A stretch of DNA of 64,000 bases from Duganella sp. 1411 (GTDB lineage: Bacteria; Pseudomonadota; Gammaproteobacteria; Burkholderiales; Burkholderiaceae_D), in the NCBI RefSeq assembly GCF_017833525.1, contig NZ_JAFICD010000005.1, positions 62,001-126,000 of the forward strand, read 5' to 3'. The translations under genes were made by a program, and so were the position numbers. Below the pieces are notes generated by a model, which made no database searches, was not told the DNA's origin, and saw only the letters and a program-made list of their open reading frames with translations. Every line of letters begins with the position of its first letter. Position 1 is the first letter of the stretch. This document shows positions 7,274-56,371 of the stretch, piece after piece.

Positions 7274-7374
7274 CCGGGGTCAGGTCCACCAATTCTACAC
7301 GGCCCGGACAGTAGCCGGATAAGTCATCCGCCTACAGCCGAGTTCGTGTAGAAATGGTGGACCTGACCCTGGAG
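7274..7374. repeat. REP-like palindrome, family 1, copy 1
   Basis: Left arm CCGGGGTCAGGTCCACC + AATTCTACACG, right arm CGTGTAGAAAT + GGTGGACCTGACCCTGG, separated by about 43 nt. The right end touches the complement of the parC TAA stop (7375-7377) with no gap. Same arms as the elements at 26998, 30763 and 56236. Confidence 0.88.
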
Positions 7375-9783
7375 TTAAACGATCGGAGTCAGCGAGGTTG
7401 GCTTGATCTTCGTCGCCAGCGCCTTGCCTTTGCGGGCGCGTTTGCCGAAGTGGACCGCCAGCGCCGATGCCGACAGCCGCTCTTCCTGCGCCTTGCCGCC
7501 ACGTCCGATGCCCGAGACGATCACGCCTTTTTGGCTGATCGGCTTGGCCGCGATCAGGGTCTCCTTGTCGTCCAGCTCCATCAGGATGACGCCGCGGCCG
7601 CCGTTGGTCAGCACCTTCATTTCGTCCATGCCGAACACCAGCACCCGCGCGTTGGCCGACAATACCGCCACCGCGCTGGCACCGTCGCCAACCACCGCCG
7701 GCGGCAGCGGTACGTCGCCTTCGTCCAGCGTGACGAAGGCCTTGCCGCCCTTGATGCGGCTGACCATGTCGCCGGCCTTGGCGATGAAGCCGAAGCCCGC
7801 GCTGGTGGCCATCATCAGCTGCGTCGCGGCGGGACCGGCGAAGTAGTGCTGGATGCGGGCACCGCTGGCCAGGTCGATCAGGGTGGTGATCGGCACGCCG
7901 TCGCCGCGCGCGTTCGGCAGCGCGGCCACGGGCACCGAGTACACCTTGCCGTTGCTGCCGAAGGCGAGCAGGTTGTCCACCGTGCGGCATTCGAACGCGC
8001 CGTACAGCGTGTCGCCAGCCTTGAACGTGAATTGCGTGGCGTCGTGGCCGATGCCGGTGCGCGCGCGTATCCAGCCTTTTTCCGAGATGATGACGGTGAC
8101 CGGTTCATCCACCACCTTCTGCTCGACCACCGCTTTCTGCGCTTCTTCGATCAGCGTGCGGCGGGCGTCGCCGTATTGCTTGGTGTCGGCTTCGATTTCC
8201 TTGATGATGGCGCGCTTCATCGACGATGGGTTGTCGAGCAGGTCCTGCAGCAGCTGCTTTTCTTTGCGCAGTTCGGCCAGTTCCTGCTGGATCTTAATCG
8301 CTTCCAGGCGTGCCAGCTGGCGCAGGCGGATTTCCAGGATGTCTTCGGCCTGGATGTCCGACAGGCGGAAACGCTCCATCAGCGCCGCTTTCGGTTCGTC
8401 CGAGTTGCGGATGATGTGGATCACTTCATCGATGTTCAGCAGGATGGTTTCGCGGCCTTCCAGGATATGGATGCGCGCGTCGACCTTGCCCAGCTTGAAC
8501 TTGGTGCGGCGGGTGACGGTGACGAAGCGGAACTCGATCCATTCCTGCAGAATCTCGCCCAGCCCCTTTTGCCGCGGACGGCCGTCGCCGCCGATCATCA
8601 CCAGGTTGATCGACGCCGACGATTCGAGCGAGGTGTGCGCCAGCAGCATCAGCATGAATTCCGTCTGATCCTGGTTCTTCGACTTCGGTTCGAACACCAG
8701 GCGCACCGGCGCGGCGCGGCCCGATTCGTCGCGGATGGTGTCGAGCGAGTTGAGGATCAGCGATTTGAGCGCCAGCTGTTCCGGCGACAGCGCCTTCTTG
8801 CCCATCTTGATCTTCGGATTGGTCAGCTCCTCGATCTCCTCGAGCACCTTCTGCGACGAGGTGCCCGGCGGCAGTTCGGTGACCACCGCCTGCCACTGGC
8901 CGCGCGCCAGCTCTTCGATCTTCCAGCGCGCGCGCACCTTCATGCTGCCACGCCCGTTGGCGTACATTTCGCTGATCTGCGCCGCCGGCGTGATGATCTG
9001 GCCACCGCCCGGGAAGTCCGGGCCCGGCACCAGCGCCATCAACTCGCTGTGCGAGATCTTCGGATTGCGGATCATGGCGACGGCCGCCTGCGTGACCTCG
9101 CCCAGGTTGTGCGACGGGATTTCCGTCGCCAGGCCGACCGCGATGCCCGAGGCGCCGTTCAACAGCACCATCGGCAGGCGCGCCGGCAGCAGGCACGGTT
9201 CCTCGGTCGAGCCGTCGTAGTTGGCCTGGAATTCCACGGTGCCGAGGTTGATCTCGTCGAGCAGCACCTTGGCGATCGGCGTGAGCCGCGCCTCGGTGTA
9301 TCGCATCGCCGCCGCGCCGTCGCCGTCGCGCGAGCCGAAGTTACCCTGGCCGTCGACCAGCGGATAGCGCAGCGAGAAGTCCTGCGCCATGCGCACCATG
9401 GCGTCGTACACCGACTGGTCGCCGTGCGGGTGCAATTTACCCAGCACGTCGCCGACCACGGTGGCCGATTTGCGCGGCTTGGCGGTCGGGTTCAGGCCCA
9501 TTTCGTTCATCGCGTACAGGATGCGGCGCTGCACCGGCTTCTGGCCGTCGCAGACGTCCGGCAGCGCGCGGCCCTTGACCACCGAGATGGCGTAATCGAG
9601 GTAGGCGCGTTCGGCGAAGGTGGACAGGGTCAGCGTTTCGCCGCCGTCGCCACCATCGCCGCCGCCGATCGGGCCGTCGCCGTCGCCGCCTTGCGGCGGA
9701 ACGGGAGGCACTGGGGGCTGCGGCGGCTGGCCGGCTTGGGCCGGCGCCGGCGTGGATTCGTCAAAGAGATTTGCTTGAGTCAT
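7375..9783 (-). CDS. parC: DNA topoisomerase IV subunit A
   Basis: 802 residues. This is the DNA-cleaving subunit of topoisomerase IV, which decatenates daughter chromosomes as a C2E2 complex with ParE. A Pro/Gly-rich N-terminal extension (about residues 13-48) precedes the breakage-reunion domain. The active-site tyrosine is Tyr162 in [10 protein letters not shown], and the quinolone-interacting segment reads [10 protein letters not shown] (118-127). The C-terminal part is shorter than a GyrA beta-pinwheel, which fits ParC. It lies 12 bp after parE in the same orientation, so both are likely one operon. Gly/Pro runs near the N-terminus are not part of the catalytic fold. Confidence 0.95.
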
Positions 9784-9795
9784 AGTCGTTCAAAA

Positions 9796-11793
<1,998 letters not shown>

Positions 11794-12016
11794 ACGTTCA
11801 AGCTTGTGATTTTAATACTGGGTTTATGTACAGTTTTAGGCGTTCGTTTGCGTATTCTATCCTCAACCGGACGCCATCGAGGCCTAAAACTGGACAAAAA
11901 ATAGCTGCGGGCCAATTTATACACGATGTTTACAACGGGGGCGTGACTTTTTAGACCGTTTTTACGGTCGCGTGGATAAGCTGTTTTGTCTCACAACCAC
12001 CGGAAAGAACCGCTTT

Positions 12017-12772
12017 ATGAACAAATTAATGCTCGCCGCTGCCGCCAGCGCGGCCTTCGCGTGCGCCCACGCGTATGCGGGGGACGACGCGCCCAAACCG
12101 GACAACGAGACCAGCTTCAACGTCGCCGCCGTTTCGGACTACCGCTATCGCGGCATCTCGCAGACCCGCCTGAAGCCCGCGCTGCAGGGTGGTGTCGATT
12201 ATGTGAACAACCCGACCGGCTTATATGCGGGCACCTGGCTGTCGACCATCAAATGGACCAGGGACGCGGGAGGTGATGGGGAGGTCGAGGTGGACATTTA
12301 CGCCGGCAAGCGCGGGCAGGTCGGCGAGGTTGTCTCGTACGACGTCGGCGTGCTGACCTACGTGTACCCGTCCAACGACCTGAAAAACGTCCGTGGCTTC
12401 GCCAATGCCGATACCACCGAGATTTACGGGCAGCTCGGTTATGGACCCGCCTATATTAAGTACTCGCACTCGGTGACCAATCTGTTCGGCTTCGTCGACA
12501 GCAAAAACAGCGGTTATGTGGATGTCGGCGCGAATATCGACGCGGGCGATGGTTTTATGGTCAACCTGCACGCCGGACATCAGAAGGTGAAGCACAACGA
12601 CGCTTCCAGCTATACCGATTGGAAGATCGGCGCGACCAAGGACTTCGGCTTGGTGACCGGGGCGCTGGCGGTGATCGGCACGAATGCCGGCAAGACGGCC
12701 TACGCTTCGCCGGCCAATGGAAAATTCCTGGGCAGGACGGCTTTGCAGCTAACGGTCAGCAAAGTCTTTTGA
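12017..12772 (+). CDS. TorF-family putative outer-membrane porin
   Basis: 251 residues from ATG 12017 (GGAAAGAA about 7 nt upstream). The signal peptide MNKLMLAAAASAAFACAHAYA precedes a beta-rich protein. The conserved start FNVAAVSDYRYRGISQTRLKPALQGG and the alternating-strand pattern ending in a C-terminal aromatic residue (QLTVSKVF) match the TorF/TIGR02001 family of small outer-membrane proteins. Members are predicted barrels of unknown cargo. It lies alone, divergent from parE and upstream of the potassium operon, with no sign of co-transcription with either. Confidence 0.82.
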   Translation: MNKLMLAAAASAAFACAHAYAGDDAPKPDNETSFNVAAVSDYRYRGISQTRLKPALQGGVDYVNNPTGLYAGTWLSTIKWTRDAGGDGEVEVDIYAGKRGQVGEVVSYDVGVLTYVYPSNDLKNVRGFANADTTEIYGQLGYGPAYIKYSHSVTNLFGFVDSKNSGYVDVGANIDAGDGFMVNLHAGHQKVKHNDASSYTDWKIGATKDFGLVTGALAVIGTNAGKTAYASPANGKFLGRTALQLTVSKVF

Positions 12773-12806
12773 TCTTTTTTTAGCACCCAACCCGCAGGTC
12801 CGGGCA

Positions 12807-12834
12807 GGGGGCGTACCCCATGGGGTACGACCCC
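12807..12834. repeat. Palindromic repeat, family 2, copy B
   Basis: GGGGGCGTACCCC-AT-GGGGTACGACCCC, preceded by CAACCCGCAGGTCCGGGC, a lead-in also found in front of copy C at 51491 (CAACCCGCAGGGCCGGGC). Lies in the 207-bp gap between the porin gene and the kdp unit. Confidence 0.8.
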
Positions 12835-12878
12835 GCAACGGTTCGGGGTGCGGCGGTGAACGACACCATTATTGCGCG

Positions 12879-12927
12879 ATTTTTACGGTTTGTTTACACC
12901 GCCCCTCCAAGTCTTTACAAAATCTTT
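12879..12927 (+). promoter_or_regulatory. Candidate KdpE operator region upstream of kdp
   Basis: T-rich sequence TTTTTACGG followed by TTTGTTTACACC (12880-12900) resembles, from memory, the T-rich KdpE site of the E. coli kdp promoter. A second similar stretch, TCTTTACAAAATCTTTAGAC, begins 12 bp later. The region lies about 55-100 bp before the first kdp-unit start codon, where an activator site would be expected. The regulator gene kdpE is encoded in the same unit. Confidence 0.45.
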
Positions 12928-12979
12928 AGACCCTTCCCGCTAACCTTCTCAGTATCAAAACAAGACCTGTGAGGGTGTG

Positions 12980-13072
12980 ATGGACATAGTATTTATCGGT
13001 GCGATGGTGGTGTTCTTTGCCGTGACCGTGGCATTTGCCGCCGGTTGCGACAAGCTGGGAGGCCAGCCATGA
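12980..13072 (+). CDS. 30-residue membrane peptide at the head of the kdp unit
   Basis: ATG at 12980 preceded by GTGAGGGTG. The product reads MDIVFIGAMVVFFAVTVAFA followed by AGCDKLGGQP: one hydrophobic helix with a short polar tail. Its TGA overlaps the kdpF ATG (ATGA, 13069-13072), implying translational coupling. It is distinct from kdpF, which follows in full. I know of no characterised function; a second small subunit or assembly factor for the Kdp ATPase is only a guess. The ribosome-binding site, coupled stop and coding-like hydrophobicity support it as a real gene. Confidence 0.68.
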   Translation: MDIVFIGAMVVFFAVTVAFAAGCDKLGGQP

Positions 13073-13158
13073 ACCTGTTCTACGTGATCGGCGCGGTGGC
13101 CGCCACCGGCCTGCTGGTGTATCTGATCGTGGCGCTGCTGAAAGCGGAGGAGCTGTGA
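13069..13158 (+). CDS. kdpF: Potassium-transporting ATPase small subunit KdpF
   Basis: 29 residues: MNLFYVIGAVAATGLLVYLI then VALLKAEEL. This is the expected size and pattern of KdpF, a single transmembrane helix that stabilises the KdpABC complex, ending in the typical LLKAEx(L). GGGAGG lies 10 nt upstream inside the preceding small gene. Its TGA overlaps the kdpA ATG (13158), giving a chain of coupled starts. Confidence 0.9.
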   Translation: MNLFYVIGAVAATGLLVYLIVALLKAEEL

Positions 13159-14975
13159 TGACCCTGCAATCGACCATTCTGCTGGTGGTGTTCCTGGCCG
13201 CCGTCTTCGCGCTGGCCTACCCGCTTGGCATCCTGCTGGCGCGCGTCGGCGATGGCGGCGCCATCCCCGGCATGGGCTGGATCGGCAAGATCGAGGCGCT
13301 GCTGTACCGCGCCGCCGGCATCGCCGGCAAGGACGGCAAGCCCGCAGGCCAGAACTGGAAAGCCTACGCCATCGCGCTGCTGGCCTTTAACGGCATCGGC
13401 GCGCTGGCCGTCTACGCGCTGCAACGCCTGCAGGCCTTCCTGCCGCTTAATCCCCAGGGCCTGGCCAACGTCAGTCCCGACTCGTCGTTCAACACCGCCG
13501 TCAGCTTTGTCGCCAACACCAACTGGCAGGGCTACAGCGGCGAACAGACCATGAGCTACCTGACCCAGATGCTGGTGCTGACGGGCCAGAACTTCTTCTC
13601 CGCCGCCACCGGCATGGCAGTCGCCTATGCGCTGATCCGGGGCTTTTCCTCGCGCTCGGCCAAGTCGATCGGCAACTTCTGGGTCGACGCCACCCGTTCG
13701 ACCTTGTATGTGCTGCTGCCGCTGTCGCTGGTCTTCGCCGTGTTCCTGATGGGGCAGGGCGTGATCCAGAACTTCTCCGCCTATCAAGAGGTGACCCTGC
13801 TCGATCCGGTCACCTACACCCAGCCCAAAGTGGGCGCGGACGGCCAACCGCTGAAGGACGCCAAGGGCGAGCCGGTCACCGAAACGCTGACCGCGACCAC
13901 GCAGACCATCGCCATGGGACCGGTCGCGTCGCAGGAGGCGATCAAGATGCTGGGGACGAACGGCGGCGGCTTCTTCAACGCCAATTCGGCGCACCCGTAT
14001 GAGAATCCAACGCCACTGGCGAACATCATGCAGATGCTGGCCATCTTCCTGATCCCGGCCGGTTTGTGCTTCGCGTTCGGCCGCATGGTGGGCGATCCAC
14101 GCCAGGGCTGGGCGGTGCTGGGGGCGATGACGTTGCTGTTCGTCGTCACCACCGTCGTCGTGCTGGGCGCCGAGCAGCAGGCGCACCCCGCGCTGCAGGC
14201 GCTGCACGTCGACCAGGCCATGAGCGCGATGCAATCGGGCGGCAACATGGAAGGCAAGGAGACCCGCTTCGGCATCAGCGCCTCCGCCTTGTTCGCCGCC
14301 GTGACGACGGCCGCCTCCTGCGGCGCGGTCAACGCCATGCACGATTCGTTCATGCCGATCGGCGGCATGATCCCGATGCTGCTGATCCAGTTCGGCGAGG
14401 TGATTTTCGGTGGCGTCGGCTCCGGCCTGTACGGCATGCTGATCTTCGCGATCATGGCCGTCTTCATCGCCGGTCTGATGATCGGCCGCACGCCGGAATA
14501 CCTGGGCAAGAAGATCCAGGCCTACGAGATGAAGATGACCTCCATCGCCATCCTGGTGACGCCGACCCTGGTGCTGGTGGGGACGGCCATCGCCGTCCTG
14601 ACGGAAGCCGGCAAGGCGGGCATCGCCAATCCCGGCGCGCACGGCTTCTCCGAGATCCTGTATGCGTTCAGCTCCGCCGCCAATAACAACGGCAGCGCCT
14701 TCGCCGGACTGTCCGCCAACACGCCGTTCTATAACAGCATGCTGGCGGTGGCGATGTGGTTCGGCCGCTTCGCGATGATCGTGCCTATCCTGGCCATCGC
14801 CGGTTCGCTGGCCGGCAAAAACAGGCTGCAAGCGAATGCCGGCACGATGCCGACCCACGGCCCGATGTTCATCGCGCTGCTGTGCGGCGTGGTGGCGCTG
14901 GTCGGCGTGCTCAATTACGTTCCGGCGCTCGCGCTCGGCCCGGTGGTCGACCACCTGCAGCTGTTTGCCAAATAA
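13158..14975 (+). CDS. kdpA: Potassium-transporting ATPase subunit A
   Basis: 605 residues from ATG 13158, which overlaps the kdpF stop. KdpA is the K+-selective channel-like subunit of the inner-membrane KdpFABC pump. Multiple hydrophobic helices are evident and the four selectivity-filter-like loops can be located, including NTNWQGYSGE, LGTNGGGFFNANSAHPYENP, TTAASCGAVNAMHD and SAANNNGSAFAGL. Length is slightly above the usual 550-600. KdpB follows 9 bp downstream. Confidence 0.96.
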   Translation: MTLQSTILLVVFLAAVFALAYPLGILLARVGDGGAIPGMGWIGKIEALLYRAAGIAGKDGKPAGQNWKAYAIALLAFNGIGALAVYALQRLQAFLPLNPQGLANVSPDSSFNTAVSFVANTNWQGYSGEQTMSYLTQMLVLTGQNFFSAATGMAVAYALIRGFSSRSAKSIGNFWVDATRSTLYVLLPLSLVFAVFLMGQGVIQNFSAYQEVTLLDPVTYTQPKVGADGQPLKDAKGEPVTETLTATTQTIAMGPVASQEAIKMLGTNGGGFFNANSAHPYENPTPLANIMQMLAIFLIPAGLCFAFGRMVGDPRQGWAVLGAMTLLFVVTTVVVLGAEQQAHPALQALHVDQAMSAMQSGGNMEGKETRFGISASALFAAVTTAASCGAVNAMHDSFMPIGGMIPMLLIQFGEVIFGGVGSGLYGMLIFAIMAVFIAGLMIGRTPEYLGKKIQAYEMKMTSIAILVTPTLVLVGTAIAVLTEAGKAGIANPGAHGFSEILYAFSSAANNNGSAFAGLSANTPFYNSMLAVAMWFGRFAMIVPILAIAGSLAGKNRLQANAGTMPTHGPMFIALLCGVVALVGVLNYVPALALGPVVDHLQLFAK

Positions 14976-14984
14976 GGAATCACC

Positions 14985-17093: not shown

Positions 17094-17103
17094 GGAGTTC
17101 ATC

Positions 17104-17694: not shown

Positions 17695-17703
17695 AATCTG
17701 CGC

Positions 17704-20532: not shown

Positions 20533-20533
20533 C

Positions 20534-21253
20534 ATGAATGATGTCACCGTCGCCCCCATCGCCTTGCTGGTCGAGGACGAGCCGCAGATCCGCCGTTTCG
20601 TGCGCGCCGCGCTGGAGGAGGAGGGCTGGCAGGTGCACGAGGCCGAGACCTTGAAGCGTGGCCTGATCGACGCCGGCACCCGCAAGCCGGACCTCGTCGT
20701 GCTCGATCTCGGCCTGCCCGATGGCGACGGCATCGATTTTGTGACGGATTTGCGCAAATGGTCGGCGGTGCCGGTGATCGTGCTGTCGGCGCGGGTTAAC
20801 GAGGCGGACAAGATCCGCGCGCTCGATGCCGGGGCGGATGATTATCTGACCAAGCCGTTCGGGGTGGGGGAGTTGCTGGCGCGGGTGCGGGCCACGTTGC
20901 GGCGGCAGCGCCAGCCGGCAGTCGATCATGACGGGTTGATTGAGTTCGGCGACGTCGTGGTGGATTTGAAGAACCGGCGGGTCACGCGGGGCGGGGAGAA
21001 TGTGCATCTGACGCCGACCGAGTATCGGCTGCTGGCGGTTTTGGTCGGTAACGCGGGGCGGGTGATGACCAATCCGCAGTTGCTGCGCGCCGTGTGGGGG
21101 CCGTCGCAGGCGGAGAACGGGCATTATCTGCGCATCTATATGGGGCACTTGCGGCATAAGCTGGAGGAAGATCCGACCCAGCCGCGTCATTTGTTGACCG
21201 AAACGGCGGTTGGTTATCGTTTGCAGTTGGCCGAATCTTCGCGATTTTCGTAG
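20534..21253 (+). CDS. kdpE: OmpR-family response regulator KdpE
   Basis: 239 residues from ATG 20534. The receiver domain has the acidic pair VEDE, phospho-acceptor Asp58 in LVVLDLGLPDGDG and Lys in YLTKPFG; a winged-helix OmpR/PhoB domain follows (about 135-230: HLTPTEYRLLAVL, LRAVWG, HYLRIYMGHLRHKLE). It activates kdp transcription. Its TAG stop codon (21251-21253) is the first TAG of the palindromic element GTAGGGCGGA..., so the repeat appears to supply the stop and the last few residues (ESSRFS) may differ from other KdpE proteins. Confidence 0.95.
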   Translation: MNDVTVAPIALLVEDEPQIRRFVRAALEEEGWQVHEAETLKRGLIDAGTRKPDLVVLDLGLPDGDGIDFVTDLRKWSAVPVIVLSARVNEADKIRALDAGADDYLTKPFGVGELLARVRATLRRQRQPAVDHDGLIEFGDVVVDLKNRRVTRGGENVHLTPTEYRLLAVLVGNAGRVMTNPQLLRAVWGPSQAENGHYLRIYMGHLRHKLEEDPTQPRHLLTETAVGYRLQLAESSRFS

Positions 21254-21345
21254 GGCGGATTAGGCGGAACGCCGTAATCGGCCATGTATGCGCCGCCAAC
21301 GGCTCATACATGGCCGATTACGCGCTTCGCGCTAATCCGCCCTAC
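21250..21345. repeat. Palindromic repeat, family 3 (GTAGGGCGGATTAGG type)
   Basis: Left arm GTAGGGCGGATTAG, right arm CTAATCCGCCCTAC, with further inner pairing (GTAATCGGCCATGTATG against CATACATGGCCGATTAC) around a short loop. The whole 96-bp unit can form a long hairpin. The left edge overlaps the kdpE stop codon. It lies in the 129-bp gap between the convergent kdpE and VWA genes. Similar GTAGGGCGGAT repeats are widespread in proteobacteria. Confidence 0.85.
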
Positions 21346-21382
21346 GTGGTTTAGAATATTTAGCAGATTTTGACAGCCGCGG

Positions 21383-22552: not shown

Positions 22553-22553
22553 C

Positions 22554-24001: not shown

Positions 24002-24208
24002 GCGTGGTGTCTCGGTGAAAATGGGATTTGAAGAGTATAGGGGAGAATCGCCCGCGTGGTTGGCCGGCTGCCGGCCTCTTCAATGTGTTGTTCTGGCAAT
24101 GATTCCGTGTAGCTTAGAATAATTTCTTGAGTTAGAATCGCAGGCTAATAGTGCAAAAGTCAAGTTTTGCATCCGCGGTAGTATCCGATTACTTACCTTG
24201 CAAACACC

Positions 24209-24553: not shown

Positions 24554-24564
24554 GGACCGCCACC

Positions 24565-26950: not shown

Positions 26951-26967
26951 GCCGCCGGCGCAAAACC

Positions 26968-26994: not shown

Positions 26995-26997
26995 CAT

Positions 26998-27099
26998 CCG
27001 GGGTCAGGTCCACCATTTCTACACGGCCTGGACAATGGCGGGCCGAATCACCGCCTTACGGCCGCGTTCGTGTAGAAATGGTGGACCTGACCCCGGAGT
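26998..27099. repeat. REP-like palindrome, family 1, copy 2
   Basis: Left arm CCGGGGTCAGGTCCACC + ATTTCTACACG, 43-nt middle, right arm CGTGTAGAAAT + GGTGGACCTGACCCCGG + AGT. The right end abuts the complement of the DUF1841 TAA stop at 27100-27102. The middle segment is alignable with that of copy 1. Confidence 0.9.
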
Positions 27100-27525
27100 T
27101 TAGAGGCGGCGCTTGACCGCTTCGATGTAGGCGTCGCCGTCCGGCGGCGTGCCGGTGCGCTGGGCGTTCCAGATCATCTCGCCCAGGCATTCCATGATCT
27201 GGTGCTGCGCTTCGTGCGCGGAGTCGAGCTTGAGCGTGAGCGCGGTGGCGGCGTCGCGGATGCCGCGCGGCTGGTCGATCGAGATCTGCTCGTCGATCGA
27301 CAGGTGCATCGACAGGTGCAGGAACGGGTTCGCTTGCGCGCCCTCGACCGAGTAGTCGCGCGCCAGCGCGGCGTCGACGTCGGCCAGCACGTCGTGGTAT
27401 TCGGGGTGGTGGCGGGCCCAGTCGGCGGCCATCGCCTCGAGCGGGGTCAGGATTTCGTTGGCGCGCTGCTTGCGGTAGGCTTCGCAAAAGAAGCGGCGCA
27501 CGTCGTCGGAGGATGGATTGAACAT
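27100..27525 (-). CDS. DUF1841 family protein
   Basis: 141 residues. MFNPSSDDVRRFFCEAYRKQ, LTPLEAMAADWARHHPEYHD, NPFLHLSMHLSIDEQ and a central HEAQHQIMECLGEMIWNAQR are the conserved segments of DUF1841, a small protein common in betaproteobacteria. Several His residues (HLSMHL, HEAQH) could bind metal, but no function is established. It follows rppH by 57 bp, beyond the rppH terminator, so it probably has its own promoter. The stop abuts REP-like copy 2. Confidence 0.87.
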   Translation of the reverse strand: MFNPSSDDVRRFFCEAYRKQRANEILTPLEAMAADWARHHPEYHDVLADVDAALARDYSVEGAQANPFLHLSMHLSIDEQISIDQPRGIRDAATALTLKLDSAHEAQHQIMECLGEMIWNAQRTGTPPDGDAYIEAVKRRL

Positions 27526-30166: not shown

Positions 30167-30762
30167 ACAAACGTGGTCTAGCCGGCCTGCTGCTGGCGCT
30201 GTCGGTGGTGACGGCGCCGGCCGCGCAGGCCGGCAATCAGAAGGAGGAGGCGCTGGCCGATTCGGTCCGCGTCGCCCTCGCCAACAGCATCAAGGACGCG
30301 ACGCCGCCGCGCATCATCTTCCGCAGCGAGGCCGAACGGCTGCGCTACGAGGGCTGGCTGGCGCAGATGTCGGCGCGCCTGCAGCGCAAGCTGCCCGACC
30401 AGCAAACCCGCCACGAGTTCCTCGCCACCGTCTGGTACGAGGCGCGCCGGGCCGGGCTCGAGCCGGGCATGGTGCTCGGCCTGATCCAGGTCGAATCGGC
30501 CTACCGCAAGTACGCGGTGTCGCTGGTGGGCGCGCGCGGCTACATGCAGGTCATGCCGTTCTGGACCAACGTGATCGGCGACCGCGACCGCAGCGCGCTG
30601 TTCAATATGCAAACCAATTTGCGCTACGGCTGCGCGATCCTGCGCATGTACATCGACATGGAGGGCGGCAACCTCTACCTCGCGCTGGGCCGCTACAACG
30701 GCAGCCGGGGACGCCCCCAATACCCGAACGCCGTGCTGACGGCGTGGAACAACTGGAAATAA
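30163..30762 (+). CDS. Lytic transglycosylase, SLT family
   Basis: 199 residues from GTG 30163 (GTGA overlap with the proS stop). A signal peptide ([20 protein letters not shown], cleaved near AQAG) precedes a domain with catalytic Glu111 in [15 protein letters not shown], followed by [12 protein letters not shown] and [13 protein letters not shown], and [12 protein letters not shown]: the SLT goose-type lysozyme motifs. It cleaves peptidoglycan glycan strands to form 1,6-anhydro-muropeptides in the periplasm. The coupling to proS is typical of related betaproteobacteria. The TAA is directly followed by REP-like copy 3. Confidence 0.93.
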
Positions 30763-30855
30763 TCCGGGGTCAGGTCCACCATTTCTACACGGGTTCATCC
30801 GCAATGCCCGTCTACGGCCGGGTTTGTGTAGAAATGGTGGACCTGACCCCGGAGT
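30763..30855. repeat. REP-like palindrome, family 1, copy 3
   Basis: T then CCGGGGTCAGGTCCACC + ATTTCTACACG, a shorter 33-nt middle, then TGTGTAGAAAT + GGTGGACCTGACCCCGG + AGT. The left edge abuts the TAA (30760-30762) of the lytic transglycosylase gene. Confidence 0.9.
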
Positions 30856-43138: not shown

Positions 43139-43153
43139 GGCCCGGGCCGGCCG

Positions 43154-44842: not shown

Positions 44843-44856
44843 GAAGAGGCGGTTCC

Positions 44857-46331
<1,475 letters not shown>

Positions 46332-46335
<4 letters not shown>

Positions 46336-46955
46336 ACCACCGCATAGGCGCGGATGGCTGGTGGCCGCCGGCGGTGCGCTACGACAGCCCCAACTTCGAC
46401 AGCCGTCCCGACCCGGACGACATCACGCTGCTGGTGATCCACAATATCAGCCTGCCGGGCGGCTGTTTCGGCGGTCCCCACGTCTCCGACCTGTTTACCT
46501 GCCGGGTGGACTATAATGCTGACCCTTCGCTCGCGGACCTGCGCGGGCTGAGGGTGTCGACCCACTTCTTCATCCGCCGCGGCGGCGCGGTGATCCAGTA
46601 CGTCTCGGCCAACGAGCGCGCCTGGCACGCCGGCGTGTCGTCGTTTCGCGGCCGCGAAAAATGTAACGACTACTCGATCGGCATCGAGCTCGAAGGCACC
46701 GACGACACGCCGTTCGAACCGGCGCAGTACGCGGCGCTGGCTGCGCTGACCGAGGCGCTGCGGCGGCGCTACCGGCTGACCGACGTCCAGGGCCACGAGG
46801 ACATCGCGCCGGGCCGCAAAACCGACCCCGGACCGTTGTTTGATTGGAACTTTTATGTTAAAAGTTGGCTGGGATTCTGTGAAGAAACTAGAAAGTTTGC
46901 ACCGGAGTTAGTGAACGCTACCGCCGTATTGCGCTTTGTCAAAGGGCTTCCTTAA
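46332..46955 (+). CDS. ampD: 1,6-anhydro-N-acetylmuramyl-L-alanine amidase AmpD with extended tail
   Basis: 207 residues from ATG 46332. AmpD cleaves the peptide from anhydro-muropeptides in the cytoplasm during cell-wall recycling. Zinc ligands are visible in LLVIHNISLPGG and GHEDIAPGRKTDPGP (His and Asp), with the conserved RAWHAGVSSFRGREKCNDYS and IGIELEGTD. Related AmpD proteins end soon after FDW; here about 28 residues more follow (CEETRKFAPELVNATAVLRF), and the last ~40 codons use many AT-rich codons (aga, tta, gta, agt) unlike the rest of the gene. The tail looks acquired or replaced by recombination. Confidence 0.92.
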
Positions 46956-47026
46956 AGTCAATAGTGCAAGCCTAATTATTTCTTCTTTTTTCAATAGGGT
47001 AGAGCTTGATATACCCGCCTTCGGCT

Positions 47027-47069
47027 ACTACAATCAGTGTATTGAATCTTCGCAATCACTAGATATAGT
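47027..47069 (+). promoter_or_regulatory. Candidate pair of NrdR boxes upstream of nrdA
   Basis: ACTAGATATAGT at 47058-47069 matches 11 of 12 positions of the NrdR-box core ACWATATATWGT. A weaker partner, ACTACAATCAGT at 47027-47038 (8 of 12), lies exactly 31 bp upstream, the centre-to-centre spacing known for paired NrdR boxes. They sit about 175-215 bp before the nrdA start in an AT-rich region. NrdR represses ribonucleotide reductase genes. Confidence 0.6.
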
Positions 47070-47241
47070 AGTTCTCATGACACTGGTTCTTCATCTACAT
47101 CATGCCCTCGGGGCCAGGTCCCACTCCTTTTTGTTGCAGTTAAACCAGCCAGGCAGGTGTGGCTGATCGCTTCATTTTGGCCTTTTTATTTACAAACATA
47201 GCCGCGCAGCACTGACTGCACGCCGTTATCGGGGAGCTTAA

Positions 47242-50184
<2,943 letters not shown>

Positions 50185-50213
50185 GCCGGCGCTGACTAAT
50201 ATATATAGAGAGA

Positions 50214-50241
50214 GAACCGTCCCGGCCCGTCCGGGCGGTTC
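50214..50241 (+). promoter_or_regulatory. Intercistronic hairpin between nrdA and nrdB
   Basis: GAACCGTCCCGG-CCCGT-CCGGGCGGTTC forms an 11-bp stem with one bulged base and a 5-nt loop, 29 bp after nrdA and 40 bp before nrdB. No T-run follows, so it is more likely an mRNA-stabilising or processing structure than a terminator. An AT repeat (CTAATATATATAG) lies just upstream. Confidence 0.55.
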
Positions 50242-50281
50242 GCTTTACACCGAACACACCGAATTCTGAAGGAAACACACT

Positions 50282-51397
50282 ATGTCGCTGTCCTGGGACG
50301 AAGAAGCCGCACCAGCGGTACCACAAGCTGTCAACGAAGCCGCGCTGGCCACCGGCGAAGCCAACGCCGAACAAGTCTCGCGTCGCGTCAACGCCGACGA
50401 CAAGCGCATCATCAACGGCAAAACCGACGTCAATCAGCTGGTGCCGTTCAAGTACAAGTGGGCATGGGACAAATACCTGGCCGGCTGCGCCAACCACTGG
50501 ATGCCGCAGGAAGTGAACATGCAGCGCGACATCGAGCTGTGGAAGAACCCGAACGGCCTGACCGAGGACGAGCGCCGCCTGGTCAAGCGCAACCTCGGCT
50601 TCTTCGTCACCGCCGACTCGCTGGCCGCCAACAACATCGTGCTGGGCACCTACCGCCACATCACGGCGCCGGAGTGCCGCCAGTACCTGCTGCGCCAGGC
50701 GTTCGAGGAAGCGATCCATACCCACGCCTACCAGTACATCGTCGAGTCGCTGGGCCTGGACGAGGCGGAGATCTTCAACGCCTACAACGAAGTCAAATCG
50801 ATCCGCGACAAGGACGAGTTCCTGATCCCGTTCATCGACACCTTGACCGATCCGGCCTTCACCACCGGCACCGTGGAAAACGACCAGAAGCTGCTCAAGT
50901 CCCTGATCGTGTTCGCCTGCCTGATGGAAGGGCTGTTCTTCTACGTCGGCTTCACCCAGATCCTGGCGCTGGGCCGCCAGAACAAGATGATGGGCGCGGC
51001 CGAACAGTATCAGTACATCCTGCGCGACGAATCGATGCATTGCAATTTCGGTATCGATTTGATCAACACGATCAAGATGGAAAATCCGCTGCTGTGGACC
51101 CCGGCGTTCAAGGAGGAGATCAAGCAGCTGTTCCTGAAGGCCGTCGATCTGGAATACGCGTACGCCGAAGACACCATGCCGCGCGGCGTGCTCGGTCTGA
51201 ACGCGACCATGTTCAAGGGCTACCTGCGCTTCATCGCCAACCGCCGCGCCACGCAGATCGGTTTGGAGACCTTGTTCGACCAGGAAGATAATCCATTCCC
51301 ATGGATGAGCGAGATGATCGACTTGAAGAAGGAGCGCAACTTCTTCGAGACGCGCGTGATCGAGTACCAGACCGGCGGCGCGCTGAACTGGGATTGA
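50282..51397 (+). CDS. nrdB: Ribonucleoside-diphosphate reductase beta subunit, class Ia
   Basis: 371 residues; AAGGAAA lies 7 nt before the ATG. It houses the di-iron centre and tyrosyl radical for NrdA. The iron-ligand helix [15 protein letters not shown] shows Glu and His ligands and the expected radical Tyr four residues after the His; a second set ([24 protein letters not shown]) supplies further Glu and His ligands. The ending ([14 protein letters not shown]) is the usual beta C-terminus that docks into alpha. A strong terminator follows. Confidence 0.96.
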
Positions 51398-51421
51398 TCG
51401 CCGCATCGCATGGGTTGTGGA

Positions 51422-51450
51422 ACGGGTCCGGGAGGGCCCGTTTTTTTTTT
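51422..51450 (+). terminator. Rho-independent terminator after nrdB
   Basis: ACGGGTCC-GGGA-GGGCCCGT (one G-T pair) followed by ten T, 24 bp after the nrdB stop. Confidence 0.9.
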
Positions 51451-51473
51451 GCGGCGGGTGGACGCCGGCGCTC

Positions 51474-51541
51474 AACCCGCAGGGCCGGGCGGGGTCGGAC
51501 CCCGTGGGGTCCGACCCCTTGTGCGCGGGCTTTGCGGGTTA
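51474..51541. repeat. Palindromic repeat, family 2, copy C with flanking arms
   Basis: Core GGGGTCGGACCCC-GT-GGGGTCCGACCCC (51491-51518) enclosed by outer arms AACCCGCA (left) and TGCGGGTT (right). The right arm runs into the complement of the monooxygenase TAA stop (51539-51541). Left lead-in matches that of copy B at 12807. Confidence 0.8.
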
Positions 51542-53029
51542 AATCAGCGAGTTCGCAATATATGTGTTCAATGCCGGACCGCGCTCGTCGCTCGCCAGCG
51601 CCCCGATGTAGCCATCCGGCCGTATCAGCGCCACCTCCCCCGGCGCGAAGCCGTACGCCGTCCGCAGATGCCCGCCGTCGTCGCGCAGCTCGCCGTCCAT
51701 TCCAACCGTCACTATTCTCAGCCCCTTGCGCGGCGCGACCACGCCGGCGCCGTCCGGTTCATACCGCAGCAAGGTCCAGCCGCCGGCCGCCAGCAACGTA
51801 AATAAACGTAAAGGCTGCCCGGCCGCGCCCCGGCACGGCGCGTCCGGCGCGCGATCGCCGGCGCGCACGATCGCATCGTCGCCGCGCGCATCGCACGCCA
51901 GCGGCGACGTCCGATACCCCAGGTCCAGCTGCTGCGTCTCGCGCCCGCGACGCAGGTCGCCGCGCGTGCGCGCCGCCTCCAGCAGCTTGCCCGCCAGTCC
52001 CAGCATCGCGGCCGCCACCTCGCGCCGCTCCGCCTCGTAGGTGTCGAGCAGCGCGTCCGGCGCGCCGTCCACCACCGCCGCCAGCTTCCATCCCAGGTTC
52101 CACGCATCCTGCACACTGGTGTTCAAGCCCTGGCCGCCGGTCGGCGGGTGGACGTGGGCGGCGTCGCCGGCGATGAACACGCGGCCGACCCGGTAGCGGT
52201 CGGCCAGCCGGGAGCTCATCTCGTACACCGAACGCCAATGCACCGCGTGCAGCGCGATGTCGGCGCGGCCGGTGCGCGCGGCGATGACCGCCGCCAGCGC
52301 CGCGTCCGAGGTGTCGATGTCGCCCTCGAGCGGAACCGGCATCTGCAGCTGGAACAGGTCGGTGCCCATCAGCGGACACAAACTGATTTGTCCGGGACCG
52401 TCGCCCCAGCGATGCCACGCGCCGCGATCCAGTCCGGTCAGGGACAGGTCGGCCACCATCGCCCGCATCTTCATCGACTCGCCGGGGAAGTCGATCGCCA
52501 GCGCCTTGCGCACGAAGCTGCGGCCGCCGTCGGCGCCGACCAGGTAGCGCGCCCGCACCGTGGTCGTGGTGCCGTCGGCCCGCGCCAGCCGCGCGGTGAC
52601 GCCGTCGGCGTGCTGTTCGAAGCCGGTCAGCTCTTGGCCGAAGCGCGGCGCGTGTCCGAGTTCGGCGAGTCTGTCGCGCAGGATGCCTTCGGTCAGATAC
52701 TGCGGCAGCATCAGCGGCAGGTTGTACGGCTCGGCCGGCGAGGGCGCCAAGCCTTCGGTCGAGGGCTGTTCGTCGTAGCCGCCGTCGGCGCGGTATTTGC
52801 GCTGCGGCGGATAGGCGCCGCCGGCGGCCACCATGCGATCGACCACGCCCATCGCTTCGAAGATTTCGAGGGTGCGCGGCTGGATGCCCTTGCCGCGCGA
52901 GCCGCTGAACGGCCCGTCGATTTTGTCGACCAGCATGAAGTCGACGTGGCGGCGCGCCAGCTCGATCGCCAAGGTCAGTCCGGCGGCGCCGGCGCCGCAA
53001 ATCAAAATGTCGGTGTTGATAGTGTCCAT
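51539..53029 (-). CDS. FAD-dependent aromatic-type monooxygenase
   Basis: 496 residues; AGGAGG 5 nt before the ATG. The N-terminal dinucleotide fold DILICGAGAAGLTLAIELAR, the YLVGADGGRSFVRKAL motif and the second FAD motif RVFIAGDAAHVHPPTGGQGL identify a PF01494 (phenol hydroxylase / PheA-TfdB) flavin monooxygenase. A C-terminal thioredoxin-like domain (about 370-490) is typical of the longer members. It would hydroxylate an aromatic or polyketide-like compound with NAD(P)H and O2; the substrate is unknown. It is divergent from a MarR gene, and an operator lies 14 bp upstream of its start, so it is probably MarR-controlled. Confidence 0.9.
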   Translation of the reverse strand: MDTINTDILICGAGAAGLTLAIELARRHVDFMLVDKIDGPFSGSRGKGIQPRTLEIFEAMGVVDRMVAAGGAYPPQRKYRADGGYDEQPSTEGLAPSPAEPYNLPLMLPQYLTEGILRDRLAELGHAPRFGQELTGFEQHADGVTARLARADGTTTTVRARYLVGADGGRSFVRKALAIDFPGESMKMRAMVADLSLTGLDRGAWHRWGDGPGQISLCPLMGTDLFQLQMPVPLEGDIDTSDAALAAVIAARTGRADIALHAVHWRSVYEMSSRLADRYRVGRVFIAGDAAHVHPPTGGQGLNTSVQDAWNLGWKLAAVVDGAPDALLDTYEAERREVAAAMLGLAGKLLEAARTRGDLRRGRETQQLDLGYRTSPLACDARGDDAIVRAGDRAPDAPCRGAAGQPLRLFTLLAAGGWTLLRYEPDGAGVVAPRKGLRIVTVGMDGELRDDGGHLRTAYGFAPGEVALIRPDGYIGALASDERGPALNTYIANSLI

Positions 53030-53042
53030 GGAACCCTCCTAG

Positions 53043-53112
53043 ATATGTGTATGATGCACATATTATTCCGGCCCGAAAAAGCTGTCAATAACTATGTGTA
53101 TAATGCACATAT
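53043..53112. promoter_or_regulatory. Two near-identical palindromic operators between monooxygenase and marR
   Basis: Operator 1 (53043-53063): ATATGTGTAT-G-ATGCACATAT. Operator 2 (53093-53112): TATGTGTATAATGCACATAT. Both have half-sites TATGTG and CACATA and are spaced 49 bp apart. Operator 2 overlaps the marR ATG (53111) and operator 1 sits just upstream of the monooxygenase gene, so a bound MarR dimer could repress both directions and itself. Confidence 0.82.
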
Positions 53113-53593
53113 GAATAAAGATCTCCTCGATACCCACAACGCGCTGCTCGACATCATCGGTTTCATGAGCAGGCCGGAGCCCGACATCGCGCTGATGTCG
53201 GAGATGTCGATGCCGCTCGAACGCGCGCTGCTGCCGCTGCTCGTGCGCATCGAACGGCGCGGTCCGATCGGCGTGGTGGAGCTGGCCGACATGGTCGGCC
53301 GCGACTACACGACGGTGAGCCGGCAGGTGGCGCGGCTCGATGAACTCGGCCTGGTGGCGCGACGCGCCGGCGCGCGCGACAAGCGCGTGCGCGAAGCGGA
53401 GGTGACCAAGGCCGGGCGCGAGGTCGTCGCCGTCATCGATCAAACGCGCGAGACGCAGGTCGGCGAATTGATGGCCGATTGGACCGCCGCCGAGCGGCGC
53501 GATCTGGCGCGGCTGATGAAGCGCCTCGCCGCCGACATGAACGCCTGGGTGCAGCGCCACAAGCATCCCGAGCACGAGGAAGATTCCGAATAG
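53111..53593 (+). CDS. MarR-family transcriptional regulator
   Basis: 160 residues from ATG 53111. The winged helix-turn-helix shows LVRIERRGPIGVVELADMVG, RDYTTVSRQVARLDELGLVA and the wing RRAGARDKRVREAEVTKAG, typical of MarR. It is likely a dimeric repressor released by a small phenolic-type ligand. The start codon is inside its own candidate operator, implying autoregulation, and the divergent flavin monooxygenase is the expected target. Confidence 0.92.
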   Translation: MNKDLLDTHNALLDIIGFMSRPEPDIALMSEMSMPLERALLPLLVRIERRGPIGVVELADMVGRDYTTVSRQVARLDELGLVARRAGARDKRVREAEVTKAGREVVAVIDQTRETQVGELMADWTAAERRDLARLMKRLAADMNAWVQRHKHPEHEEDSE

Positions 53594-53644
53594 TCCTACG
53601 CGCCGTCGCCACGCGACGCGCGCCGGCACTGCACGAACGCTCGA

Positions 53645-53715
53645 CGAACACGCGTCGGACACCTCGCCCACCACCTCGTCGAACATCCCGGCGAACACTT
53701 CGCCGAACACCTCGC
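53645..53715. repeat. 12-bp degenerate tandem repeat, about six units
   Basis: Units of consensus CGAACACCTCGC: partial CGAACACGCGT, then CGGACACCTCGC, CCACCACCTCGT, CGAACATCCCGG, CGAACACTTCGC and CGAACACCTCGC. The 12-bp period keeps reading frame on either strand (for example GEVF-like repeats on the minus strand), but no credible gene spans it. Confidence 0.7.
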
Positions 53716-54197
53716 CGCCGCGCGCCGAGTACTTCACCAGCATCGCCGACACACATCGACGCTCGCGCCGAACGCAGGCGCGCCGCGGCGCGTCGCAGTA
53801 TTCCGCTTGCCATTCGTCGCACTCTGTCTCATAATCGCGACGAATTTAAAAACAGTGAGCAGCGACAGCGCGCATGCGATGCGCAAGCGCTCTCGGATTC
53901 GGAAGATGGTGGCGCGGAACGCGCGGCGATGCTGGCGACATCGCAGACACCCAGGCGGCAATTGGCTCGCTTTGAAGCGCGATTTTTTTGCGCGGCGCGG
54001 CAAGCGCATTTTCGAACTCGATTGAGCGCGCACATCGCACCACGATGTCGCAAGCGAGCAAGCGCGAAGCGCCACGCGTATGTGAAATGGCGAGCATAAG
54101 ACGAAAAAAAGCGGGCGAATACTTCTCGTGCCGGTTGCGTACCGACAAGGTTTTCGTGTACTTTACGAGATTGAAAATGTGTGTTTATAAAAGTGCG

Positions 54198-54330
54198 TTT
54201 TTTTTGAAGTGCGCACACCGCAGAAATGATCGCGATCACGGGATACAGATTCACAAAGATATGCACAAGACCACACCGTTTTTGTTCAACCGTCTTTCCT
54301 GATTCGGTTCAGGTTGGGCGGTTTTTTGTT
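54198..54330 (+). ncRNA. Candidate small RNA upstream of the histone H1-like gene
   Basis: TTTACG (54162-54167), 18-bp spacer and TATAAA (54186-54191) form a plausible sigma-70 promoter with a start near 54198. The unit ends in a strong Rho-independent terminator about 130 nt later. No convincing open frame with a ribosome-binding site lies between. The family is not recognised. Confidence 0.35.
54288..54327 (+). terminator. Rho-independent terminator in the gene-free region
   Basis: Outer stem AACCGTC with GGGCGGTT, inner stem CCTGA with TCAGG, then six T. Strong two-part hairpin; something on the plus strand must be transcribed up to it. Confidence 0.75.
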
Positions 54331-54633
54331 TGAAAACGAAAACGACGATGTGGCTGCGACGTAGGTCCCTGGAGCTGAGCACACGCCCGACCACCCGCAA
54401 AACGTCGCAACAAGATTTGTATCTGCACGCCGCGCCGGCCACGGACGGCGGACAGATAGATGGCTGAAGTGCTGCACTCGTGAGGGGTTGCAGCAGTTCA
54501 GCTGGTGCCGAATTCATTAGCGCAAACCGTATTCTGTTTGTGCCGATGAATAATTCGCCTGGCCCAATCCGGGGCCGGACGGGTTTAAATCTTGTATGTG
54601 AATTTTCCCATCCCCGATGAAGGAGAACTAAAA

Positions 54634-55617
54634 ATGGCAACTGCCGCAAAGAAACCAGCAGCAAAAAAGCCGGCCGCTACTAAAGCCGCCGCCCCAGCGA
54701 AAAAGCCTGTCGCAGCGAAAGCAGCCGCCAAGCCAGCAGCGAAAGCCGCCGCCAAACCAGCCGCTAAACCAGCCGCCAAAGCCGCTGCCAAGCCAGCTGC
54801 AAAACCAGCCGTGAAAAAAGCAGCCGCCAAGCCAGCAGCCAAGCCAGCAGCGAAAGCAGCAGCGAAGCCAGCAGCTAAGCCAGCAGTGAAAAAAGCCGCT
54901 GCCAAGCCAGTCGCTAAAAAAGCGGCAGCCAAGCCAGCAGCCAAAGCAGCAGCGAAGCCAGCAGCAAAAGCAGCAGCCAAGCCAGCAGTGAAAAAAGCAG
55001 CGGCCAAGCCAGCAGCAAAGCCAGCAGCTAAAAAAGCCGCAGCCAAGCCAGCAGCAAAGCCAGCCGCTAAAAAAGCAGCTGCCAAGCCAGCGGCAAAGCC
55101 AGCAGCGAAAGCGGCAGCCAAGCCAGCGGCAAAAAAAGTAGCCGCCAAGCCGGCAGCGAAAAAAGCGGCCGCCAAGCCAGCCGCTAAACCTGCCGCCAAA
55201 GCAGCAGCTAAACCAGCAGCCAAAAAAGCTGTCGCCGCTAAACCAGCCGCCAAGGCAAAAACAGCAGCCAAGCCAGCTGCAAAGGCAGCGGCTAAGCCAG
55301 CAGCAAAAAAGCCGGTTAAGGCAGCCGCCAAGCCGGTAGCTGCCAAGAAGCCAGCCGTCAAGGCTGCGGCCAAGCCAGCAGCAGCCAAGCCAGCGGCAGC
55401 CAAGCCGGCCGCCGCTCCAGCACCGGCAGCCGCTCCAGTTGCCGCGGCGGCACCTGCTCCGGCAGCCAAGCCAGCCGTGAAAAAAGCCGCCCCTAAAGCG
55501 GCCGCACCGAAGAAGGAAGCTGTCGCCAAGCCAGCCGCTCCTGCCGCCGCGCCTGCGGCAAAAACCGTGTTGGCACCGGCGGCCGCATGGCCGTTCCCAA
55601 CCAGCACGCGTCCATCC
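54634..55617 (+). CDS. Histone H1-like Lys/Ala/Pro-rich DNA-binding protein
   Basis: 328 residues; ATG 54634 has AAGGAGAA 6 nt upstream. Nearly the whole protein is a repeat of AAKPAAK and AVKKAAAKPA units, with only a short non-repetitive end (VLAPAAAWPFPTSTRPS). This is the composition of bacterial H1-like proteins (HctB/AlgP type) that bind DNA non-specifically and compact the nucleoid. The DNA is correspondingly internally repetitive, so copy number of units may vary between strains or assemblies. An inverted repeat upstream may regulate it and a strong terminator follows. Stop codon TAA at 55618-55620. Confidence 0.9.
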
Positions 55618-55652
55618 TAAGCTAAATACTTAGGTGCCTGCTGAGGCAACCG

Positions 55653-55689
55653 GCCGCTGTGTGAGACAATCACACAGCGGCTTTTTTTT
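55653..55689 (+). terminator. Rho-independent terminator after the histone-like gene
   Basis: GCCGCTGTGTGA-GACAA-TCACACAGCGGC, a perfect 12-bp stem, followed by eight T. Confidence 0.95.
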
Positions 55690-55698
55690 GGAGGGACC

Positions 55699-56229
55699 GT
55701 GCTTAGTATTGTTATGTTGATTGTCGATGCCATCGCCACCTTGTTGGGCGGGGCCTTGCTGTTGCGTTTCTGGATGCAGGCGATCCGCGTACGTCCGCCG
55801 CAATCGGTGGCGCAATTCACGTTCCAGTTATCGGACTGGCTGGTGCGGCCGTTGCGGCGCATCGTGCCGGGCATGGGCGGCTACGACTGGGCCAGTCTGA
55901 TCGGCGCCTTCCTGATCGTGCTGCTGGCGACGTCGGTGCTGTTCTTCGCTGGCTGGCCGGCGCAGGCGGTGCTGTTGGCCGCGTTCGAGCGCTTCCTCAA
56001 ATGGATACTGTACGGCTTCATGGCGCTGCTGGTGGTCGAAGCGATCTTCAGCTGGGTCAATCCGCACGCGCCGCTGGCGCCGTTCGTGCGCGCGCTCAAC
56101 GAGCCGCTGCTGCGGCCGATCCGCCGCGTCGTGCCACTGGTGGGCAATCTGGATTTATCGCTGCTGGTGGCGCTGATCGCGCTGCAGATCGCCCAGATCC
56201 TGCTGGGCATGGCCTTCAACGGCCGTTAA
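55699..56229 (+). CDS. YggT family membrane protein
   Basis: 176 residues from GTG 55699, chosen because GGAGG lies 4 nt upstream; an ATG at 55714 lacks a site. Two YGGT repeats can be seen (about 10-85 and 95-170), each with two hydrophobic helices and a WLVRPLRRIVPGMGGYDW or EPLLRPIRRVVPLVGNLDLS segment. YggT proteins are small inner-membrane proteins linked to osmotic tolerance or cell division in other bacteria; function here unknown. The stop is 6 bp before a REP-like element. Confidence 0.9.
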   Translation: MLSIVMLIVDAIATLLGGALLLRFWMQAIRVRPPQSVAQFTFQLSDWLVRPLRRIVPGMGGYDWASLIGAFLIVLLATSVLFFAGWPAQAVLLAAFERFLKWILYGFMALLVVEAIFSWVNPHAPLAPFVRALNEPLLRPIRRVVPLVGNLDLSLLVALIALQIAQILLGMAFNGR

Positions 56230-56235
56230 AAAAAA

Positions 56236-56371
56236 CTCCGGGGTCAGGTCCACCATTTCTACACGAACTCGTGTGTAATGGCGGACCCGACCCCGGATTT
56301 GCTTTGTGCGGCGGCCAAAATCGGCCACCACACATCAGCTCGTGTAGAAATGGTGGACCTGACCCCGGAGT
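56236..56371. repeat. REP-like palindrome, family 1, copy 4 (composite)
   Basis: Starts CTCCGGGGTCAGGTCCACC + ATTTCTACACG, followed by a degenerate, nearly loopless return arm (GTGTGTAATGGCGGACCCGA + CCCCGGA, to 56297), then 43 nt with GGCCAAAATCGGCC, then another full right arm (56341-56371). So three arms are present instead of two. The right end abuts the kinase TAA complement at 56372-56374. Confidence 0.88.

What the first reader, a model, noticed from the sequence alone, without database searches (positions are those of the whole stretch)
7274..56371. All four family-1 palindromes abut a TAA stop codon
Elements at 7274, 26998, 30763 and 56236 each end 0-1 nt from the TAA of parC, DUF1841, the lytic transglycosylase and the PfkB kinase. 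Twice the junction is identical (cTAAACTCCGGGG). The neighbouring proteins do not look truncated, so the elements sit exactly at gene ends rather than inside them. This could reflect insertion specificity for a stop-like target, or a role of the hairpin in 3'-end protection.
Basis: partly seen in the sequence, partly recalled or inferred. Interest (0 to 1): 0.72.

Follow-up and report, generated by a model that had tools for sequence, protein, structure and literature searches.

The report
Mobile hairpins hugging gene stop codons
Small hairpin-forming mobile DNA pieces, apparently spread by a matching transposase elsewhere in the genome, sit right at the stop codons of genes far more often than chance, and a sister species often carries a different hairpin family at the same gene end.

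Summary
The four palindromes belong to a family with 151 arm copies in this 7.6 Mb genome. Of 56 two-armed elements, 40 lie within 15 nt of a stop codon, against 4.6 expected for uniform intergenic placement and 22.6 for random placement inside the same gaps. The stop is usually the gene's own: in 50 of 58 comparisons a sister genome ends at the same codon. At 1-2 nt the stop is TAA in 21 of 21 cases (background 43%), because the common element end (A)ACTCC spells its last A's. The predicted RAYT exists: a Y1 transposase gene lies between two copies of the same arm, and transposase clades match arm families across the genus. This is the TIRYT/TIRtron branch of the REP-RAYT system; stop-hugging and stop-supplying ends are already reported for GTAG REPs. 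Less expected: at 28 of 51 orthologous sites the sister genome carries a related arm, none best matched by this family, against 5 of 135 other intergenic regions. Best explanation: insertions survive at gene ends, the element end can rebuild TAA, and occupied sites are inherited while arms or elements are replaced by the resident family. A role in mRNA 3' ends or translation is untested.

The parts
7273..7373 (.). family-A palindromic element 1 (TCC...GGA); left arm from 7276, right arm to 7370
   Evidence: RNA fold of 7270-7377: -72.7 kcal/mol
7375..7377 (-). TAA stop of parC, 1 nt from element 1; its AA coincides with the AA of the element end AACTCC
   Evidence: (same stop codon position in G017)
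26997..27097 (.). family-A element 2; its left end lies 2 nt from the T-run of the terminator-like hairpin after the malate:quinone oxidoreductase gene
   Evidence: (-76.0 kcal/mol)
27100..27102 (-). TAA stop of the DUF1841 gene, 2 nt from element 2 (cTAAACTCCGGGG)
30760..30762 (+). TAA stop of the SLT transglycosylase gene, directly joined to element 3
30763..30853 (.). family-A element 3; behind the same stop there is a clade-B element in G004, the start of a clade-C arm 22 nt on in G017, and no element in G007 and G008
   Evidence: -67.3 kcal/mol
56227..56229 (+). TAA stop of the YggT-family gene, 7 nt from the left end of element 4
56237..56369 (.). family-A element 4 (longer inner part); orthologous element with related inner part but different arms in G017
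   Evidence: -95.5 kcal/mol
56372..56374 (-). TAA stop of the PfkB kinase gene, 2 nt from element 4 (cTAAACTCCGGGG)

Best explanation
The elements are short inverted-repeat (REP-like, TIR-type) mobile elements, most likely moved in trans by a Y1 transposase of the TIRYT/RAYT type whose gene lies between the same arms elsewhere in this genome. Shown: the arms, the transposase between them, stop-hugging, native stops, the TAA rule at 1-2 nt, and shared sites with different arms. Inferred: new copies land widely but survive almost only at gene 3' ends; because the common end reads AACTCC from outside, an insertion inside or next to a stop codon can rebuild a TAA at once, so even insertion into the stop is tolerated, which gives the peak at 1-2 nt. 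An occupied site then tends to be inherited, while its arms, or the whole element, are later overwritten by the family of the transposase resident in each lineage. Any effect of the hairpin on mRNA stability or ribosome stalling would be a by-product that may add selection for keeping it.
For: Stop adjacency above two nulls. At 1-2 nt TAA 21 of 21 (background 571 of 1334, Fisher p 2e-8), spacer c in 10, ac in 9, gc in 2; AACTCC is the outer end of 65 of 137 arms, CACTCC or TACTCC of 25 more. Native stops: 50 of 58 at the same codon, 5 of 63 without a hit. Transposase between arms, the left arm starting 132 nt before its ATG and the right arm 11 nt behind its stop; Y1_Tnp 41.5 bits. In a 20-protein tree the clades match the arm families (the fork joining L034 to its four arm relatives has support 93/96, not starred). 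G017 has only 5 family-A arm copies against 171 of its own family; of its 4 Y1 matches one is in the L033 clade, one in the third clade, one is a 233-aa type and one a weak partial match not read. Shared sites: 28 of 51 versus 5 of 135, Fisher 1.6e-14 (counted by region, 30 of 60). Arm exchange with the inner part kept: L074, where two tandem copies share an identical inner part but differ in the family of one arm, and site 11, where G017 has two exact clade-C arms around a remnant related to the element here. 4 of 60 two-arm pairs in held stretches are mixed.
Against: At the other sites where G017 has an exact or one-mismatch B or C arm, inner parts rank first only at two sites where the window ran into shared flank, so independent insertion at the same gene end remains possible. 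The same-gap null already gives 22.6 of the 40. TAA excess also appears at 3-15 nt (25 of 36), where the element does not supply it. Stop type differs between the genomes at other distances too, not only at 1 nt, so those changes do not single out stop rebuilding. In the more distant G004, with 187 arm copies, 3 of 24 sites carry an arm (0 of 38 background, p 0.05); on the same 27 sites G017 has 8 of 20, a difference that is not significant (p 0.08), and the two counts used different flank criteria. No transposition was observed and no clean target sequence could be read.
Confidence: 0.6

Rival explanations
1. Target-site preference: the transposase chooses a TAA-containing or stop-proximal single-stranded target, so stop-hugging is written at insertion.
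For: TAA 49 of 63 within 15 nt and 25 of 36 at 3-15 nt versus 571 of 1334; TAA 14 of 14 within 16 nt in G001 and 22 of 24 within 14 nt in G040 (20 elements read in each, stop usage of these genomes not measured); one clean empty site aaataa^taaaaaaaa in G017 without target duplication.
Against: TGA at distance 0 in 3 of 6 cases; spacings from 0 to 15 nt; several ends sit at terminator T-runs, not stops. TAA usage by gene class was not corrected for.
Confidence: 0.2
2. Pure tolerance: insertions are random and only those between a stop and the next functional signal survive; the end sequence plays no part.
For: 1 of 56 between divergent genes, 26 convergent; several elements lie between a terminator T-run and an opposing stop.
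Against: Excess at 2 nt or less inside the same gaps (19 observed, 9.2 expected) and TAA in 21 of 21 at 1-2 nt. A second palindrome family in the same stretches (GTAGGGCGGATTAG) is less tied to stops: 16 of 179 ends within 10 nt, 10 of these being the stop itself.
Confidence: 0.12
3. Recruited 3'-end function: the hairpin right after the stop protects the mRNA 3' end or stalls ribosomes, and selection keeps it there; families can be exchanged because only the hairpin matters.
For: 40 of 56 within 15 nt, the distance at which REPs are reported to affect translation in E. coli (Liang 2015, not read, as cited in passages of PMC12306157); predicted RNA folds of -67 to -95 kcal/mol for the four window elements; different families at the same gene end.
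Against: No expression data; 3 of 24 sites shared with G004.
Confidence: 0.08

Closest known systems
TIRYT/TIRtron elements (PMC3733652), probably TnpAREP subclass 2.1 = RAYT group 1 (PMC6006769)
   Same: Y1 transposase gene between long inverted repeats with a GGGGWSAS core (here GGGGTCAG), dispersed repeats that can form dimers, arm family tied to transposase clade, C-terminal helix-turn-helix (weak match).
   Different: The passages and the one section seen do not describe stop-hugging, stop-spelling ends or shared sites with exchanged arms for TIR families.
GTAG REPs/REPINs with RAYTs
   Same: Inverted pairs, RAYT-REP co-evolution (PMC2817692, PMC3686654), location under 20 bp from 3' ends of convergent genes and GTAG termini that supply TAG stops (PMC3733652).
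   Different: These arms pair with each other rather than each forming its own hairpin; the ends give TAA through AACTCC, not TAG.
E. coli REPs within 15 nt of stop codons (Liang, Rudd, Deutscher 2015, known here only as cited in PMC12306157)
   Same: Palindrome close behind the stop codon.
   Different: Effect on translation reported there; not tested here.

Membership tests
TIRYT/TIRtron (RAYT group 1, TnpAREP subclass 2.1) | Y1 (HuH) transposase domain | tested here: met
   PF01797 41.5 bits, cut-off 23; NCBIfam REP_Tyr_transpos 77.7 bits, just under its cut-off 80; HuH-type MTNHYHLL in the sequence
TIRYT/TIRtron (RAYT group 1, TnpAREP subclass 2.1) | C-terminal HTH_28, HTH_23 or Bac_DnaA_C domain | tested here: inconclusive
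   HTH_28 at residues 247-278, E 2e-4, 21.7 bits, below cut-off 25; HTH_23 15.7 bits, below 24.6
TIRYT/TIRtron (RAYT group 1, TnpAREP subclass 2.1) | gene flanked by inverted repeats with a GGGGWSAS core | tested here: met
   32-nt inverted arm with GGGGTCAG around own transposase; of 36 related loci 26 have inverted arms and 21 a core found with a slightly looser pattern; 10 had no inverted arm of 12 nt or more
TIRYT/TIRtron (RAYT group 1, TnpAREP subclass 2.1) | dispersed repeats identical to the flanking repeats | tested here: met
   151 arm copies, 90 of the 100 listed exact
TIRYT/TIRtron (RAYT group 1, TnpAREP subclass 2.1) | placement in the published subclass by phylogeny | not tested
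   tree made only with 20 proteins of this genus
GTAG REP/REPIN | self-complementary 20-40 bp unit starting with GTAG | tested here: not met
   the dispersed arm ends in GGGG outward and forms its stem with the opposite arm; GTAG occurs inside the arm only
GTAG REP/REPIN | mobilisation by cognate RAYT | not testable with these tools
   needs an assay

The most novel reading that the evidence does not exclude
Gene 3' ends act as inherited docking sites: once an element is lodged at a stop codon, the site is kept through speciation while the arms, one at a time or together, are overwritten by the family of whichever RAYT is resident, so sister species carry different palindromes at the same stop codons.
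Probability: 0.4. Interest if true: 0.75.

Novelty: new member of a known kind. Interest (0 to 1): 0.52.

Why it matters
It gives the TIR branch of the RAYT system the stop-codon bias known for REPs, with a simple sequence reason (ends that can rebuild TAA). The shared sites with exchanged arms make the question of how REP-like families and their transposases co-evolve testable site by site between sister species.

Tried and rejected
Chance or gene-calling artefact: rejected by two nulls, by native stops in G017 and by samples of 20 elements from each of two other species. Truncation of genes by the element: not the rule (50 of 58 same stop; of the 8 that differ seven are 1-2 codons longer or shorter, and one, delta 45, is probably a wrong match). 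Universal hot spots as the sole reason for shared sites: only disfavoured (G004 3 of 24 against G017 8 of 20 on the same sites, p 0.08). Common descent of all shared elements: not shown; same-site inner parts ranked first in 7 of 27 pairs, and two of these (sites 34 and 42) are trivial because the single-arm window ran into shared flank. Reading a target sequence from empty sites: failed, since the G017 sites without an arm mostly hold sequence that cannot be told to be ancestral or decayed. Solved structures: no useful sequence match (best E 0.1; TnpArep 4er8 at E 0.34). The parC 3' ends could be read for 10 loci only; the script read the others in the wrong orientation, and these rows were not used.

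Full report
What is there. The window holds four copies of a palindromic element, TCCGGGGTCAGGTCCACCATTTCTACACG, a variable inner part, then the reverse complement of the arm. The window is a stretch of a 7.63 Mb genome that holds 151 arm copies with up to 3 mismatches, 75 forward and 76 reverse, with none for the reversed pattern. Each window copy abuts a TAA: parC 1 nt, DUF1841 2 nt, SLT transglycosylase 0 nt, PfkB 2 nt, and a YggT gene 7 nt from the other end of the fourth.

Genome-wide test. The tool listed 100 of the 151 places; I fetched 20 kb stretches around these plus some others, found 81 elements and called genes with a codon-usage gene finder of my own. 56 elements have both arms; the 25 with one recognisable arm were left out of the distance test. 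40 of 56 lie within 15 nt of a stop; uniform intergenic placement predicts 4.6 and random placement in the same gap 22.6, with 0 of 20,000 simulations reaching 40. Twenty elements read from each of two more species agree: 11 of 20 within 10 nt in G001, 18 of 20 within 14 nt in G040. A second palindrome family in the same stretches, GTAGGGCGGATTAG, is a contrast: 179 outward ends, 16 within 10 nt of a stop, of which 10 are the stop codon itself.

Why the stop. The stop is normally the gene's own: of 63 genes with an element within 15 nt, 58 had a G017 counterpart, 50 ending at the same codon and 8 not. The commonest outer sequence of an arm is AACTCC (65 of 137 arm ends). Within 1-2 nt the stop is TAA in 21 of 21 cases and the spacer is c, ac or gc; background is 571 TAA of 1334 stops. 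The simplest reading is that the element end supplies the last A or AA of the stop codon, so insertion into a stop is tolerated. Two facts limit this: TAA is also in excess at 3-15 nt (25 of 36), and the stop type differs between the two genomes at several distances, not just at 1 nt. Other ends abut not a stop but the T-run of a terminator-like hairpin.

The mover. Four Y1 transposase matches exist in the genome. One, L034, lies between two copies of the family-A arm, the left arm starting 132 nt before its ATG and the right arm lying 11 nt after its stop. It has a Y1 domain and a weak C-terminal helix-turn-helix. I read 34 such genes (4 here, 30 of the 35 matches in ten relatives) and put the 20 of 260 aa or more in a tree. 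The group with L034 carries GGGGTCAGGTCC.. arms (fork support 93/96), the clade with own L033 and G017 L252 carries GGGGTCAAGTCT.. arms, and the clade of G017 L244 and G034 L271 carries a third type. Of 36 loci with relatives, in Duganella, Massilia, Janthinobacterium, Accumulibacter, Nitrotoga and others (one matches only 35 residues), 26 have inverted arms and 21 a GGGGWSAS-like core.

Shared sites, different arms. G017 has 5 family-A arm copies but 171 of its own clade-B family; this genome has 151, and 10 of the B pattern, all at 3 mismatches. I looked for the sites of the 81 elements in G017 with three searches. Both flanks were found for 56; 5 had long gaps, leaving 51 with flank identities of 74-97%, median 91%. 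At 28 of these G017 has a related arm, none best matched by family A, and 23 have none. Of 135 other intergenic regions in the same fetched pieces 5 have one (Fisher 1.6e-14). 15 of the 28 have a B or C arm with at most one mismatch. At sites 3, 27, 40, 60 and 77, where the G017 arms are of other types, inner parts are related, so these look like one inherited element with changed arms. At the B or C sites inner parts rank first only at two sites where flank was included (27 of the 28 sites compared). Site 11, too short for that comparison, is telling: G017 has two exact C arms around a stretch that aligns with the element here. Behind the transglycosylase stop this genome has family A, G004 clade B, G017 a clade-C arm starting 22 nt on, and G007 and G008 no element, the TAA being followed at once by an A-run. 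In G004, 3 of 24 sites read have an arm although it has 187 copies, and none of 38 background regions; G017 has 8 of 20 on the same 27 sites (p 0.08 between them), so a fading with distance is suggested, not proven. In L074 two tandem copies share an identical inner part but differ in the family of one arm. Small samples from G001 and G040 agree in part: of 9 elements with an orthologous neighbour in held stretches, 5 have at least one neighbour within 150 nt of an element here (L298 with both neighbours; L321 with one, the other at 187 nt; L288, L312 and L315 with one only), where about one would be expected from 102 to 135 of 1388 genes.

What is known. TIRYT transposases, TIRs with a GGGGWSAS core and dispersed TIR dimers were described in PMC3733652 (passages and one section seen); PMC6006769 assigns most of them to subclass 2.1, which it equates with RAYT group 1 (passages). 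PMC3733652 also reports REPs under 20 bp from 3' ends and GTAG termini that give the TAG stop. RAYT-REP co-evolution and different REP classes around orthologous RAYTs are in PMC2817692 (passages) and PMC3686654 (abstract and passages). The 15-nt translation effect is Liang 2015, seen only as cited in PMC12306157 (passages). PMC8049555 and PMC3390384 were seen in passages. The paper searches listed no paper whose title or abstract start describes exchange of families at shared sites, but the library lacks most subscription journals and I read only parts of seven papers.

Verdict. A real, strong, genome-wide pattern that belongs to a known kind of element. The stop-rebuilding end and the shared sites with exchanged arms are the parts worth following.

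Noticed in passing
window 21249-21346: A second palindromic family (CGTAGGGCGGATTAG...) whose end supplies the TAG stop of the gene 20534-21253; in held stretches 10 of 179 such ends are a stop codon, against 69 of 7479 GTAG words.
   Followed up: partly
parC 3' end in relatives (L121, L123, L124, L126, L128, L129, L132): By eye, different palindromes lie behind the parC stop in several species of the genus; 10 loci were readable.
   Followed up: partly
L072 10884-10968 and L095 10001-10084: Right arms that look like chimeras of two arm families within one arm, suggesting short conversion tracts.
   Followed up: no
window 2444-5081: Two adjacent related genes, 1351 bp apart in register, aligned blocks 72-84% identical.
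   Followed up: no
window 54585-55620: Highly repetitive reading frame rich in Ala, Lys and Pro codons (12-bp units) that the gene finder missed.
   Followed up: no
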